42,677 nucleotides of DNA from Chloroflexota bacterium (GTDB lineage: Bacteria; Chloroflexota; Dehalococcoidia; Lucifugimonadales; Australimonadaceae). This document shows positions 1-37,600 of the stretch, one piece after another. Where the stretch lies: positions 1 through 42,677 of the forward strand of contig JAPPHT010000069.1 in assembly GCA_028874795.1 (NCBI GenBank), read 5' to 3'. Each line of letters begins with the position of its first letter. Position 1 is the first letter of the stretch. The position numbers were made by a program, and so were the translations under genes. The notes under the pieces are model-generated. The model worked only from the letters and a program-made list of their open reading frames with translations, searched no databases and was not told where the DNA came from.

Positions 1-656
1 AGCGGTTGATCGTGGAGCAGATACGCGAGCACATCCTGACCGAGAGCAACATGCGCGACCTCGTTCGGCTGGTGAACGAGGAGATGGACAGCGTGATCGC
101 CGGGGAGCGCGAGCGGCTGGAGGCTGCGGAGTTGGAGTTGGCCGAGGTGCGCCGGCGCATGGACCGGCTGTGGCAGTTGGTCGAGAAGACGGATATGACG
201 GTGGAGGACATCCTTCCGCGCATCCGTCACCACCAGGAGAACCAGGAGCGGCTGGAGCGCGCTGCTGATGAGGCTCGGGTGGAGTTGGATGCGCGGCTGG
301 CGGGTGTGCAGGACGCCGAGGTCGTTGCCGCGTACGCGCGTGAGATGGGTGAGTGGCTGCTGGAGAGTGGGCTAGCTGAGACGAAGGCCTTTCTACGGAC
401 GTTCGTGAAGGAGATCGTGGTGCGACCTGGGCTTGCAACGATCCACTACGCGGTTCCGACGCCGGAGGACAGTCCGATAGGGGGATCGGATGTGGCGGAG
501 GTCACGCTGGGGCGTCGATTTATGAAATCGGTATCGTCAGGGGAGCCTGTCGAACCACCCCTGCAGCCTCCGTTGCGACCGCCCCTCCGAGCGCCCCTGC
601 GCGCGGCGCCACGGAGCTACTCCTCGAGGAACGGGCCTCCGTGCAGGGTCCGGTAG
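1..656 (+). CDS. Large serine recombinase, C-terminal part (5'-truncated)
   Basis: The reading frame is open to the window edge, so the catalytic N-terminus (serine resolvase domain) lies outside. What remains is a long charged coiled coil (about residues 20-105, rich in E, R and L) followed by a short beta-rich segment (KEIVVRPGLATIHYAVP). This is the usual layout of the C-terminal zinc-ribbon/coiled-coil half of large serine recombinases, which integrate or excise phages and integrative elements. The last 40 or so residues are odd: a GEPVEPP stretch encoded by a dispersed repeat, then PPLRPPLRAPLR-type repeats, overlapping the convergent gene by 40 bp. The tail therefore looks like run-on through repeat DNA rather than native protein. 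Family call is moderately sure; element identity is unknown. Confidence 0.75.
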   Translation, partial: RLIVEQIREHILTESNMRDLVRLVNEEMDSVIAGERERLEAAELELAEVRRRMDRLWQLVEKTDMTVEDILPRIRHHQENQERLERAADEARVELDARLAGVQDAEVVAAYAREMGEWLLESGLAETKAFLRTFVKEIVVRPGLATIHYAVPTPEDSPIGGSDVAEVTLGRRFMKSVSSGEPVEPPLQPPLRPPLRAPLRAAPRSYSSRNGPPCRVR

Positions 657-2443
657 AGTGCGCGGAACTCCTCCCGCGCGGCTGCCGGAGCATGGTTCAG
701 AAAGGCGCGGTAGATCGCTTCCGTTCGCCCGTCATCGGTGCGGAGTCCTGAAGCGAGAGCCTTGCGGTCGGACTCCTGCAACGTAACGGACATCTCCCGC
801 CATGCCGCGGCCATCGCCTCCTCGCCGACCGCTTCGAGTATCTTCAACAGGAAGTACTCGCCCATCCGGTAGTCGCACCCTCGCCTGTTGCCGTCGAAGT
901 GTTCGAGCTCCCACAGGTTCGCTACACCCAGGCGATCGAAGCACCCGGAGAACGCAGTTAGCAGTTGGGACCTGCGTTCATCCAGTGTCACGACTCCTTT
1001 CCGGTGCCATACGACAGAGTCGACGAACTCGGCCCCACCTTCGAGAAACCAGGTCGGTCCTGTCATGAAATGGCCGAAATAGTAGTGGGCTGTCTCATGC
1101 GGCACGCTGATCACTGAGCCATCTTCGAACCGGGTCAACGTCATGAACGAGCCAAGGTGGGCGCCGCCAATCTCTCCGAGCAACAGGATCACATCGGTTG
1201 TTGGGAAGGGGACCGACATCAACGGTTCGGAGACACGCAGCGTGTCTTCGATGTTGGTCAACACGTCGTCGCCCGGTGGAAACGGCTCAGCCTGGAATAC
1301 CCAGATGTTCACGTCTCCGGCCAGGGGCAGCGAAACGGTGCTGGCCTGCGTGAAGCGGCTGTCGAGCAGGTCTTCGTACTGCTGGGTGTGGTTTCTGGCA
1401 GTACGGCCAAGCACAGTCAGAAACGCCGTCTCTTCGTCGTTCAGGCCGTCAGCGAACCAGGGTTGCCTCGTCAGGTGGTCGAGTGCAGCCGGTCCCAGCT
1501 CCGCGAAGTCGAAGATGCTGAGGAGAACGTGGAGCCCCTGGTCGCCGGTGCTGCGGAGCGCTTCCTCGCCCCAGTGCAGCGCCAGCCCGGGGTCCAGCCT
1601 GGCGGTCTCTCCCAGGGCATGAAGCGCATCACTCTCGACGAGAGTGATGTCGTCAGCGAACCGGGGAGTATCCAGGATCCGCTCCGCCAGCGCCGGGTGT
1701 ACTGAAGCGATGACCCGCAGTGCCTTGAGCGCCTGCCTCTCCGGGCTGGTGATGTTGTCCAGGAACCATGCCATGCCCCCTGTCGATCGCGCCGTTGCAG
1801 GGTCGGTCCCGGTGATCCGTTCCAGAGCTTCGAGTGCCTCCTGCTCGTCGATTGTCACTTCGTCGTTCAGCCAGGGAAGAGCCGTAACCAGTGCCGTGAG
1901 ATCGACGCCGTGACCGGCGATCCTCTCGAATACCCGCAAGGCAAGGGACTCCGTGATATCCACACCGTCCGCAAGCCAGGGGAGCCTGGCAACGGTATCG
2001 CCGGCGCCGGCATCTCGTATCCAGATGTTTGTGAGCAACTCCGATCCCGCCACGTCGTAGTCGCCCGCCGGGTTGTCGAACCACGGAAGCACCTCTGACA
2101 GTCGGGCGGCGGCGAGTTCCCCGGGCGTGATGGTCGGCGTCGGTGTGACTGTGGGCGTCCCCGTGGGAGTGGGTGTCGGGGTGGGCGTGGGAGTCCCCGT
2201 GGGGGTGGGCGTGGGAGTCCCTGTAGGAGTGGGCGTAGCGGTGGGTGTGGGAGTTGGCGTGGGCGTCGGAGTAGGAGTAGCGGTGGGCGTTGCTGGTGGT
2301 ACGGGGATGAGTGTCGCCGTGGGCGTCGGTGAAGGAGTGGTGCGCTCCGTAACCTGCACCACGCTGATGGTTGGCGGGGCGGAGTCGCAGCCGACGACGC
2401 CGATGGCAGATGCCGTCAGGATGAAGAGCGCGAGGGTGCGCAA
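617..2443 (-). CDS. Lipoprotein with Pro-Thr linker, internal repeats and HExxH metallopeptidase domain
   Basis: I place the start at a TTG (2443) because it gives a clean lipoprotein signal, MRTLALFILTASAIGVVGC, with a GGAG nine bases upstream; the open frame extends further to 2611 without a signal. After the lipidated Cys comes a long (PT)n linker (about residues 35-95), suited to spanning an envelope or cell wall. Residues about 100-330 contain degenerate repeats of about 45 residues (LPWLxD...ExxALxxLxxI). The C-terminal domain carries HETAH (449-453) followed by WFLEGGAEF, the zinc-binding HExxH plus downstream Glu of gluzincin peptidases (peptidase MA-like). It is predicted to be an extracytoplasmic, membrane-tethered zinc peptidase; the substrate is unknown. 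It is convergent with the recombinase fragment. Confidence 0.75.
   Translation of the reverse strand: MRTLALFILTASAIGVVGCDSAPPTISVVQVTERTTPSPTPTATLIPVPPATPTATPTPTPTPTPTPTATPTPTGTPTPTPTGTPTPTPTPTPTGTPTVTPTPTITPGELAAARLSEVLPWFDNPAGDYDVAGSELLTNIWIRDAGAGDTVARLPWLADGVDITESLALRVFERIAGHGVDLTALVTALPWLNDEVTIDEQEALEALERITGTDPATARSTGGMAWFLDNITSPERQALKALRVIASVHPALAERILDTPRFADDITLVESDALHALGETARLDPGLALHWGEEALRSTGDQGLHVLLSIFDFAELGPAALDHLTRQPWFADGLNDEETAFLTVLGRTARNHTQQYEDLLDSRFTQASTVSLPLAGDVNIWVFQAEPFPPGDDVLTNIEDTLRVSEPLMSVPFPTTDVILLLGEIGGAHLGSFMTLTRFEDGSVISVPHETAHYYFGHFMTGPTWFLEGGAEFVDSVVWHRKGVVTLDERRSQLLTAFSGCFDRLGVANLWELEHFDGNRRGCDYRMGEYFLLKILEAVGEEAMAAAWREMSVTLQESDRKALASGLRTDDGRTEAIYRAFLNHAPAAAREEFRALYRTLHGGPFLEE
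2128..2297 (-). repeat. GC-rich microsatellite encoding a (PT)n linker
   Basis: Imperfect hexanucleotide repeats (GTGGGC/GTGGGA/GTAGGA on the plus strand) lie in frame inside the lipoprotein gene and encode alternating Pro-Thr on the minus strand. Unit differences are mostly synonymous, so the protein is more regular than the DNA, which argues for selection on a flexible tether. Slippage here could change linker length. Confidence 0.8.
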
Positions 2444-2493
2444 CGGGTGCGTCTCCGGGACAAGCTCAGGAGAGTGTAGCAGGCGGTGCCGAC

Positions 2494-2537
2494 GACACCC
2501 GCTCCTTTCGCGGTCGCGCCCCGGCCCGTACGCTGGT
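2494..2537 (+). repeat. Dispersed intergenic repeat, copy A
   Basis: About 44 bp upstream of the lipoprotein gene, starting GACACCCGCTCCTTTCGCGG and ending TACGCTGGT. It matches copies at 3650-3701 (same strand) and 37423-37474 (opposite strand). No coding role is evident. Confidence 0.75.
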
Positions 2538-2587
2538 CGGTGACGGCGCGCAGCGCCAACGTCGATCGCTACCAGTCCCTCCTCATA

Positions 2588-2616
2588 TTGACCACGCCTC
2601 CTATGGGACATAGCCT
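2588..2616 (+). promoter_or_regulatory. Possible sigma70-type promoter for the toxin-antitoxin pair
   Basis: TTGACC (2588-2593) and TAGCCT (2611-2616) are separated by 17 bases, about 100 bp upstream of the antitoxin start. The -35 box is good but the -10 box matches the consensus at only three positions, so this is tentative. Confidence 0.3.
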
Positions 2617-2711: not shown

Positions 2712-3302
2712 ATGATGGCCATGAGCAAGGAGGAGGCAGTCATCCTGGGTCTGCTCTCCCAGCTCCCAGGTGCTACCGGCAGGACGAAGTTGGTGAAGCT
2801 GGTCTATCTGGTAGACAACCTCTGGGCCGAGCATACCGGGAGGCCTCTCACCGGCTATCGATATCACTGGGACAACTTCGGTCCGAATGCCGTCGGCAAT
2901 CAGATCGTCGCAACGCTTGACGGCCTGAGCGATTCCGGACTGCTCCGCTCTTCGCAAGGCTCGACCCCGTACGGGAATCCGGCCTACTACTACCGGACAT
3001 CGCAGGCTTGCGATCCCGCACAACTGCCATTGTCGTCCGATGAGTGGATGTTCGTACAGTCGATCACCAAACGGTTCGGGAAACTGAACCGGGAGTCCAT
3101 GGTGAAGGTAGCCAAGGCTACGTTGCCCATGAAGAACGCCGCCCAGGGCGACGTGCTGGTCCTGGAAGCCAACCCTGACATCGAAGCCATCCAGAAGCGC
3201 GTACTATCGAACGCCGACCTCATGGCGCAGGTAGACGAGTCGTTGCTTTCGGATGACCCGGGAATCTCGCTGGAGGAACTCAAAGCCTCCTATGCCCAAT
3301 AG
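2712..3302 (+). CDS. Panacea-domain (DUF4065/SocA-like) antitoxin
   Basis: A 196-residue soluble protein. Residues about 20-70 show the Panacea signature: a KLVKLVYLVD helix, then GYRYHWDNFGPNAV, where a Tyr/Phe-Gly-Pro core follows a Trp-rich strand. Panacea domains are known as promiscuous antitoxin modules that neutralise unrelated toxins (SocA, PanA families). The gene overlaps the next ORF by 11 bases, the usual arrangement for a co-translated antitoxin-toxin pair. Several ATGs lie close together (2712, 2715, 2721); GAGG at 2705-2708 sits best for 2715. The C-terminal 80 residues are less recognisable and may be the toxin-contacting part. Location beside a recombinase fragment suggests transfer. 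The family call is fairly firm; the activity is inferred. Confidence 0.75.
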   Translation: MMAMSKEEAVILGLLSQLPGATGRTKLVKLVYLVDNLWAEHTGRPLTGYRYHWDNFGPNAVGNQIVATLDGLSDSGLLRSSQGSTPYGNPAYYYRTSQACDPAQLPLSSDEWMFVQSITKRFGKLNRESMVKVAKATLPMKNAAQGDVLVLEANPDIEAIQKRVLSNADLMAQVDESLLSDDPGISLEELKASYAQ

Positions 3303-3552
3303 TCTCGTGGTCTTGCCAACAGCCCAGGCGCACATCGACCGGGCTGGAGGCGACGGCAGAGAAGAGATCCTCCCTTGCCTTGACGAAATACTGGCGAACC
3401 CGGAACCCGACGGTCAGCGCATATTGCGACTCAGGGAAGAGCCGCTGATATACGTGTATCTCTGCGGCATCTACCACATCTTGTTCGACGTGCAGAGGGG
3501 GCCAACACCGGATGTCCGCCTTCGTGTGCGGGCAGTCGATGCAGTCGTGTAG
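3292..3552 (+). CDS. Small RelE/ParE-like putative toxin
   Basis: An 86-residue ORF starting at an ATG inside the last codons of the Panacea gene, with GGAGG about 14 bases upstream, so translation is probably coupled. The pattern is compact alpha/beta: an N-terminal strand (SLVVLPTAQAHI), a helix around EILPCLDEIL, then strands ending YVYLCGIYHILFDVQ, which resembles the central Tyr/Arg-rich strands of RelE/ParE-fold toxins (compare their YRxxYxV). RelE homologues cleave mRNA on ribosomes and ParE homologues poison gyrase; the sequence does not settle which. The assignment depends on position and fold pattern more than on catalytic residues, which I cannot identify with confidence. It could be a non-toxic partner. 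Confidence 0.6.
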   Translation: MPNSLVVLPTAQAHIDRAGGDGREEILPCLDEILANPEPDGQRILRLREEPLIYVYLCGIYHILFDVQRGPTPDVRLRVRAVDAVV

Positions 3553-3649
3553 GGAGGGGGCGCAAACCACCCTTCGCTCCAGCCTCCGCCGGGGTGACGG
3601 ACCCCCTGTCCTGCCTTTGCTGTCCATCGCTGTTGATTGTCGGATTGCT

Positions 3650-3701
3650 GACACCCGCCCCTTTCGCGGTCGACCCCGCACCCCGTACGCTGGTTGCATG
3701 A
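3650..3701 (+). repeat. Dispersed intergenic repeat, copy B
   Basis: 52 bp starting GACACCCGCCCCTTTCGCGG and ending TACGCTGGTTGCATGA. It agrees with the inverted copy at 37423-37474 at about 43 of 52 positions by eye. It lies between the toxin gene and leuS. Confidence 0.75.
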
Positions 3702-7245: not shown

Positions 7246-8193
7246 ATGTCCACATCATCGCACAATTGTGCTATCTGGGAAACCCCGGCAGAAAGACAGT
7301 TTAGTAGAGGAATGTATGCCTTTGATTCTCCTCGTGCGGGAGGTGCATATCTAATCGACATGGACGCTATCGACCGCGTTTCATCACTTGCGGATGAAGC
7401 TAAGGCACGGCTTACCACCATGCTTGTTGATCAGCGACGTCAGGGGATTCCGGTGCCTCAAGTGACAAGAGACACACTCTATGTCGCCTCTTCGAGTGCA
7501 TCTCTTCCTGTTTATGAACGTGCCGTCAGGTTACTACATCACTTGGCTGATTCGATTGCCATCGGCCAAACTGGGAACATGAACTGTGCCGATTACAATC
7601 TCCTGATTGCATCTGAGTCTGTTCAGTCTCATGAGGTTCGAGCTTTCCTGGGTTATCTGGAGGACAACGGGCTAATACGTTGTCGACATTCTATGGGTGG
7701 GCATTTCCTGTGTGAAATTACGGTGGACGGTTACGGAAGAATTGAAGCCATCAGCACGCGCGTTGATTCATCGCAAGCCTTCGTAGCAATGTGGATTGAC
7801 GACGACATGAAAGACATCTACGAATCGGGTATTAAATCTGCAATCGAGAGTGCTGGGTACAGCCCGTACCGTGTCGATAAGGAGATTGTACAATCCCCTG
7901 ATACTGGAAAGATAGACGATACGATAATTGCGGAGATTCGCCGCTCGCGCCTCGTGGTTGCCGATTTTACTCATGGAGAGAACGGTATCCGTGGCAGTGT
8001 CTACTATGAAGCTGGGTTCGCACATGGCCTAGGAATCCCTGTCATCTACTCATGCAGGAAAGACCAGATTGAAAAGCTGCACTTCGACACGCGGCAGTAC
8101 TATCACATTGCTTGGGAAACACCTCAAGAGCTCCGCGGAGACCTCGAGAAACGGATATTGGCCATGGTGGGTGAGGGACCCAACAAACGCTAG
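7246..8193 (+). CDS. Putative nucleotide-targeting effector: unnamed N-terminal module plus nucleoside 2-deoxyribosyltransferase-like domain
   Basis: 315 residues, ATG with AGGAG eight bases upstream. Base composition is clearly AT-richer than its neighbours (TTT, TCT and AGA codons), a sign of recent transfer. Residues about 177-305 form a Rossmann-like domain: AFVAMWIDDDM, a helix (YESGIKSAIESAGY), a DKEI turn, SRLVVADFT (235-242) and GSVYYEAGFAHGLGIPVIY (250-268). The Glu in YYEAGFA corresponds to the catalytic Glu of nucleoside 2-deoxyribosyltransferases and related TIR-like NAD/nucleotide-cleaving folds. The N-terminus has a CxIWxTPA (8-15) and DSPRAGG (27-33) motif; the middle (about 90-165) resembles a winged helix. 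Such domains occur in bacterial conflict systems, so a role as a nucleotide-depleting or nucleotide-modifying effector is inferred. A metabolic role cannot be excluded. Confidence 0.7.
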   Translation: MSTSSHNCAIWETPAERQFSRGMYAFDSPRAGGAYLIDMDAIDRVSSLADEAKARLTTMLVDQRRQGIPVPQVTRDTLYVASSSASLPVYERAVRLLHHLADSIAIGQTGNMNCADYNLLIASESVQSHEVRAFLGYLEDNGLIRCRHSMGGHFLCEITVDGYGRIEAISTRVDSSQAFVAMWIDDDMKDIYESGIKSAIESAGYSPYRVDKEIVQSPDTGKIDDTIIAEIRRSRLVVADFTHGENGIRGSVYYEAGFAHGLGIPVIYSCRKDQIEKLHFDTRQYYHIAWETPQELRGDLEKRILAMVGEGPNKR

Positions 8194-37474: not shown

Positions 37475-37600
37475 GCAAGAATCCACCTTCCCGCCTTCGC
37501 GGGAACGACGGAGGGAACCCCCGAGAGGTTCATCGACTCCCCTGCGTTCCGCTCGGAATGACCCTCCCGTTCCGCTCCGTCCTGTTCACCGCTATCCCGG

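What the first reader, a model, noticed from the sequence alone, without database searches (positions are those of the whole stretch)
2712..3552. Panacea antitoxin with a small RelE/ParE-like partner next to a recombinase
The Panacea-type protein and the 86-residue ORF overlap by 11 bases, the typical arrangement of a toxin-antitoxin pair. Panacea partners are very diverse, and this toxin only loosely resembles RelE/ParE, so it may be a new toxin type in this family.
Basis: partly seen in the sequence, partly recalled or inferred. Interest (0 to 1): 0.6.

Follow-up and report, generated by a model that had tools for sequence, protein, structure and literature searches.

The report
Panacea antitoxin with RelB-like tail
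Two overlapping bacterial genes form a probable toxin-antitoxin pair in which a small RelE-fold toxin is held in check by a Panacea-domain protein, apparently through a borrowed RelB-like tail at the end of that protein; the parts are known kinds, the combination is a new variant and nothing has been tested at the bench.

Summary
Window 2712-3302 encodes a Panacea protein (Pfam SocA_Panacea, above cut-off). An 86-aa ORF (3292-3552) follows with an 11-nt overlap. No curated family names the small protein, but it is real and conserved: seven other Panacea relatives in the same class each have a matching small ORF next to Panacea (six downstream on the same strand, one convergent; one of the seven is broken). 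A profile built without the window finds the window copy (17.9 bits, 0/5000 shuffles as good). AlphaFold gives a relative a confident RelE/ParE fold (PDB best Z 11.3), so it is not a new toxin fold.

The new point is the antitoxin. Relatives of this toxin without Panacea are preceded by 54-65-aa RelB-like antitoxins. The last 45 residues of the window's Panacea protein match their C-termini (0/1000 shuffles; the only equally good C-termini among 491 were other antitoxins of this toxin family). Panacea proteins with other partners lack this tail. I infer that the tail neutralises the toxin and that the winged-helix Panacea core is a sensor or platform. Toxicity, neutralisation and target are untested. 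The window toxin lacks a basic residue common in its family, so it could be weak or inactive.

The parts
2712..3302 (+). Panacea (SocA/DUF4065) antitoxin, 196 aa; relatives' starts line up with the internal ATG at 2721; SD-like GAGAGG at 2703-2708
   Evidence: Pfam PF13274 29 bits over cut-off 25.7; relatives 28-37% identical with KLVKLVYL, GPNA and other invariant residues
2712..3167 (+). Panacea core domain (residues 1-152), predicted winged helix
   Evidence: AlphaFold pLDDT mostly 81-95; best PDB match DarTG complex chain 7yk3_B, Z 11.7, rmsd 4.2 over 132 residues, then winged-helix proteins
3168..3299 (+). C-terminal RelB-like tail of the antitoxin (residues 153-196), inferred toxin-neutralising element
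   Evidence: Matches the profile of stand-alone antitoxins of the same toxin family: 8.8 bits, 0/1000 shuffles; 4 of 491 other C-termini score as high and all 4 lie directly upstream of toxin relatives; hhalign probability 96, E 2.6e-9 on a three-tail profile; three low-confidence helices in the model
3292..3552 (+). RelE/ParE-superfamily small protein, 86 aa, inferred toxin
   Evidence: Leave-window-out profile 17.9 bits, E 0.003, 0/5000 shuffles; RelE fold predicted for relative L014; PHROG RelE-like toxin E 0.076
3292..3302 (+). 11-nt overlap of antitoxin stop and toxin start, suggesting translational coupling
   Evidence: Sequence; the same 11-nt overlap is seen directly in L010

Best explanation
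The pair is a type II toxin-antitoxin module (PanAT class). Upstream is the antitoxin: an N-terminal winged-helix Panacea core plus a C-terminal RelB-like tail. Downstream, translationally coupled through an 11-nt overlap, is a RelE/ParE-fold toxin. Shown by computation: both genes, their conserved linkage, the family fold, and the tail's relationship to stand-alone RelB-like antitoxins of the same toxin family. Inferred: the tail wraps the toxin as RelB wraps RelE ('linear neutralisation'), while the Panacea core senses a trigger or regulates. Inferred and less certain: the toxin inhibits translation as a RelE-type mRNA endonuclease; a ParE-like gyrase effect is not excluded.
For: Panacea hit above cut-off. 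Seven relatives found by Panacea homology alone (L005/L016, L006, L007, L008, L009, L010, L015) each have a ~90-104-aa neighbour of the same kind: six downstream on the same strand (L009 interrupted by a stop), one convergent. Leave-window-out toxin profile: window copy 17.9 bits, 0/5000 shuffles. AlphaFold of L014: beta-alpha-alpha-beta-beta-beta-beta, pLDDT 82; PDB top RelE2, RelE1, archaeal RelE, YoeB, Z 10.6-11.3, 81-85 residues, rmsd 2.4-2.9; Foldseek E 1.1e-4 to T. thermophilus RelE; the profile's weak PDB hits are mostly YoeB and RelE. L015's partner matches ParE_toxin along its length, below cut-off. Toxin relatives without Panacea follow short antitoxins, one weakly hitting NCBIfam RelB (E 0.02). 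Window tail matches their profile, 0/1000 shuffles; the joint tail profile's best PDB hit, weak (E 0.065), is the C-terminus of M. tuberculosis RelB1, partner of RelE1, one of the toxin's best structural matches. Panacea proteins with other partners show no tail: PemK-linked L011 and the genome's second Panacea L051 (p 0.2-0.5). Divergence of Panacea core and toxin is correlated over six loci (r 0.67, 4/720 permutations).
Against: No toxicity or neutralisation data. The window toxin is the most divergent member: no curated family hits, and only 8 bits with the profile of the five Panacea-linked relatives. It reads AVDA where 9 of the 15 relatives compared have a basic residue (NIGR-like), and it is shorter at the C-terminus. 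The fold was predicted for a relative, because the tool's alignments placed the window's last strands poorly. The tails of L005, L006 and L009 do not match the RelB-like profile significantly (p 0.03-0.17), so the tail either diverged or is not universal in this branch. No co-fold was possible. No promoter or terminator consensus was found.
Confidence: 0.66

Rival explanations
1. Conformational neutralisation: the Panacea core itself binds the RelE-like toxin, and the C-terminal resemblance to RelB-like antitoxins is weak convergence of amphipathic helices.
For: In some Panacea antitoxins the core binds the toxin directly (PMC10440598). Tails of L005, L006 and L009 are not significantly RelB-like although their partners are of the same family.
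Against: The window, L008 and L010 tails beat all shuffles, and equal background hits were only other toxin-linked antitoxins. AlphaFold separates the tail from the core. Panacea proteins with other partners lack the match.
Confidence: 0.2
2. A decayed module: the window toxin has lost activity (missing basic residue, shortened C-terminus) and the Panacea protein is kept for another role or is on its way out.
For: AVDA in place of NIGR and the earliest C-terminal end of the Panacea-linked set; relative L009's toxin is interrupted by a stop, so decay happens in this family. The module is absent from the five same-genus genomes searched.
Against: The reading frame, the overlap and the match to the family profile are intact. 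Several family members lack the basic residue too (L006, L026, L029).
Confidence: 0.25
3. The partner is a ParE-type gyrase inhibitor and not a RelE-type ribosome-dependent RNase.
For: RelE and ParE share a fold; ParE toxins are in the structural match list and L015's partner hits Pfam ParE_toxin. Lack of the basic residue suits a non-catalytic toxin.
Against: The best sequence and structure matches are RelE and YoeB RNases, and the antitoxin tails look RelB-like, not ParD-like.
Confidence: 0.25

Closest known systems
PanAT systems (Panacea/DUF4065 antitoxin with diverse toxins; Kurata et al. 2022, PMC8832971)
   Same: Panacea-domain antitoxin adjacent to a small toxin gene; ParE-like toxins already listed among partners
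   Different: This branch carries a RelB-like C-terminal tail and a RelE-fold toxin that has no Pfam or NCBIfam model
Panacea antitoxins with linear neutralisation (Phd-C, ZBD, PAD1; PMC10440598)
   Same: A separable element attached to Panacea is inferred to do the neutralising
   Different: The element is RelB-like and pairs with a RelE-fold toxin; the paper's main text names Phd-C/Doc, ZBD/MqsR and PAD1/toxSAS
RelBE (M. tuberculosis RelBE1/RelBE2; E. coli RelBE)
   Same: Toxin fold (Z about 11) and, weakly, antitoxin C-terminus
   Different: The platform carrying the tail is a Panacea winged-helix core; the window toxin has AVDA where family members usually have NIGR
YefM-YoeB
   Same: Best weak sequence matches of the toxin profile in the PDB are YoeB
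   Different: Antitoxin platform is Panacea, not Phd/YefM

Membership tests
Panacea (SocA/DUF4065) antitoxins | SocA_Panacea domain over curated cut-off | tested here: met
   29 bits vs 25.7
Panacea (SocA/DUF4065) antitoxins | Adjacent conserved small toxin gene | tested here: met
   Matching small neighbour in 7 of 7 relatives of the same class
Panacea (SocA/DUF4065) antitoxins | Neutralises the toxin in vivo | not testable with these tools
   Needs expression assay
RelE/ParE superfamily | beta-alpha-alpha-beta(3-4) fold matching RelE/ParE structures | tested here: met
   Met for relative L014: pLDDT 82, Z up to 11.3; the window copy is linked to it by profile only
RelE/ParE superfamily | Window protein hits a curated RelE/ParE model (a matter of detection rather than a defining feature) | tested here: inconclusive
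   No Pfam or NCBIfam hit; PHROG RelE-like E 0.076; only a profile of its own relatives detects it clearly
RelE-type ribosome-dependent RNase | Basic residue at the end of the last strand (NIGR-like position) | tested here: not met
   AVDA in the window copy; R or K in 9 of 15 compared relatives; position judged by sequence alignment only, so the window toxin is filed under the superfamily and not under the RNases
RelE-type ribosome-dependent RNase | Ribosome-dependent mRNA cleavage | not testable with these tools
   Biochemistry needed
RelB-type neutralising tail | Homology of the antitoxin C-terminus to antitoxins of the same toxin family | tested here: met
   0/1000 shuffles; specific among 491 C-termini; hhalign 96%
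RelB-type neutralising tail | Tail alone binds and neutralises toxin | not testable with these tools
   No complex prediction tool; bench test proposed

The most novel reading that the evidence does not exclude
Panacea proteins have taken up the toxin-binding tail of RelB-type antitoxins, putting it on a winged-helix sensor, so that an ordinary RelE-fold toxin comes under control of a (possibly phage) trigger sensed by Panacea.
Probability: 0.35. Interest if true: 0.6.

Novelty: new variant of a known kind. Interest (0 to 1): 0.42.

Why it matters
What the Panacea domain does in antitoxins that neutralise through another element is open; PMC10440598 proposes a sensor role. Here the same toxin family is found with bare RelB-like peptides and with RelB-like tails on Panacea. 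That natural pair of contexts lets one ask directly what Panacea adds, with the bare antitoxins as built-in controls.

Tried and rejected
tblastn of the 86-aa protein in genome contigs found no relative and in related genomes found only itself and one poor hit; profiles were needed. Phage, plasmid and viral collections gave no relatives. Direct AlphaFold of the window toxin was not run: the tool's alignments placed its last strands badly, so relative L014 was folded instead. Codon comparison of two near-identical copies (L005/L016: Panacea 5 synonymous, 8 nonsynonymous codons; toxin 3 and 2) is too small to infer selection. First shuffle tests failed because of a wrong HMMER option and were repeated. 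The 2494/3650 repeat was considered as insertion-site repeats of the pair; a similar copy at 37475 and single copies upstream of leuS in sister genomes point to a dispersed element instead. A PDB sequence-profile search with Panacea found nothing. Supplementary datasets of the Panacea papers could not be opened, so a RelE cluster with this tail may already be listed there.

Full report
Observation. The window (contig C22 of a 3.3-Mb genome; titles of related records place it in Dehalococcoidia, Chloroflexota) holds a 196-aa ORF at 2712-3302 and an 86-aa ORF at 3292-3552, overlapping by 11 nt. The first passes the Pfam SocA_Panacea cut-off. The second matches no Pfam, NCBIfam or PADLOC model and only weakly the PHROG RelE-like toxin family (E 0.076, collinear over 66 residues).

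Linkage. Searches with the Panacea protein alone found relatives (28-41% identity) in a handful of genomes of the same class. Of seven distinct loci in that class, all have a ~90-104-aa neighbour of one kind: six immediately downstream on the same strand (in L009 interrupted by a stop codon) and one convergent (L015). L010 has the same 11-nt overlap as the window. A more distant Panacea from Dormibacterota (L011/L018) has a PemK toxin instead. None of the five same-genus genomes searched has the pair; leuS, the downstream neighbour, is present in all five, and in one (G004) similarity to the window ends at 3577, 25 nt after the toxin stop. So the pair lies at the edge of a variable segment. 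Distances between Panacea cores and between toxins are correlated across six loci (r 0.67, 4 of 720 permutations).

The small protein. A profile of 11 relatives without the window finds the window copy with 17.9 bits over residues 4-70 (E 0.003 at 20000 sequences) and none of 5000 shuffles scores as high. AlphaFold of the relative in L014 (pLDDT 82, pTM 0.73) has the order beta-alpha-alpha-beta-beta-beta-beta. Nearly all of the 50 best PDB matches are RelE/ParE-superfamily proteins: M. tuberculosis RelE2 Z 11.3 (81 residues, rmsd 2.4), RelE1 Z 11.1, archaeal RelE Z 10.7, YoeB Z 10.6; Foldseek agrees (T. thermophilus RelE, E 1.1e-4). The profile of the family reaches YoeB and RelE in the PDB, weakly (E 0.05-0.2). 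The convergent partner in L015 matches Pfam ParE_toxin along its length, below cut-off. The fold is therefore RelE/ParE, not new. The window copy is divergent: it reads AVDA where nine of 15 compared relatives have a basic residue (NIGR-like), and it ends early. Whether it is an active RNase is open.

The tail. A class-wide profile search found close toxin relatives without Panacea. Where the upstream gene could be read, they follow short ORFs of about 54-65 codons sharing a C-terminal pattern (D-x-x-F-M-x-x-V ... E-E-L-K-R-K); one hits NCBIfam RelB weakly (E 0.02). The C-termini of the Panacea proteins of the window, L008 and L010 share that pattern. Scored with a profile of five stand-alone antitoxins, the window tail gets 8.8 bits (0/1000 shuffles), L008 17.8 and L010 14.7 bits; of 491 other C-termini four reach the window's score, and all four are ORFs directly upstream of toxin relatives (locations). 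L007 is marginal (2/1000 with one profile, 37/1000 with the other), L015 is supported by one profile (1/1000) and less by the other (19/1000), and L005, L006 and L009 are not significant. Panacea proteins with other partners, L011 and the genome's second copy L051, show no match. Profile-profile comparison of seven stand-alone antitoxins with three Panacea tails gives probability 96% (the tail profile is small and its members were chosen after they were seen to match, so this number is supportive rather than independent). The joint profile's best PDB hit is the C-terminus of M. tuberculosis RelB1 (E 0.065), partner of RelE1, itself one of the best structural matches of the toxin. AlphaFold of the window Panacea gives a confident core (1-152) and a low-confidence, helical tail (155-196).

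Mechanism. Shown by computation: the gene pair, its conservation, the toxin family fold, the tail's similarity to antitoxins of the same toxin family. Inferred from RelBE biology: the tail wraps and blocks the toxin; translational coupling sets the ratio of the two products. Inferred from PMC10440598, which reports that Panacea antitoxins with extra elements (Phd-C, ZBD, PAD1) neutralise through these and proposes a sensor role for Panacea: the Panacea core here may sense a trigger. L010 sits near a phage major head protein gene, so at least one copy is probably prophage-borne; a role in phage conflict is plausible, not shown.

Comparison and novelty. ParE-like partners (PMC8832971) and RelE/ParE folds (PMC10440598) are already in the Panacea/TA networks. 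A RelB-like tail on Panacea paired with a RelE-fold toxin was not found in the passages of either paper searched here; their supplementary data could not be read. I rate it a new variant of a known kind.

Noticed in passing
G000:C79:245927-246259 (L051): The same genome has a second, more typical Panacea gene (62 bits) with its own 93-aa downstream ORF overlapping by 1 nt and no Pfam hit; its Panacea lacks the RelB-like tail.
   Followed up: partly
window 7246-8193: 315-aa protein with a C-terminal stretch matching a PADLOC TIR effector model (E 4.7e-9) and weakly a nucleoside deoxyribosyltransferase model: possible defence gene.
   Followed up: no
window 2494-2539, 3650-3696, 37475-37442 (-): Dispersed element GACACCCGCCCCTTTCGCGGTCG..CCGTACGCTGGT, also upstream of leuS in sister genomes.
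   Followed up: partly
Panacea model, window 2712-3167: Best PDB match of the Panacea core is a chain of the M. tuberculosis DarTG toxin-antitoxin complex (7yk3_B, Z 11.7, rmsd 4.2 over 132 residues), above the generic winged-helix matches.
   Followed up: no
L065:903-1812: In another class of the phylum a RelE-like relative is preceded by a 193-aa protein with a Panacea/YwgA-looking N-terminus but no Pfam hit, whose C-terminus resembles the RelB-like tail.
   Followed up: partly
L048, L031, L033 (own genome C79 and sister genomes): 157-209-aa antitoxins made of duplicated RelB-like tail units precede toxin relatives, next to what looks like an FAD-binding dehydrogenase subunit gene.
   Followed up: no
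window 617-2611 (-): 664-aa ORF with a Thr/Pro-rich repeat tract and an HETAH peptidase-like motif but no Pfam hit.
   Followed up: no
L054-L058, upstream of leuS: The site upstream of leuS carries different genes in the same-genus genomes, so it looks like a variable spot.
   Followed up: partly
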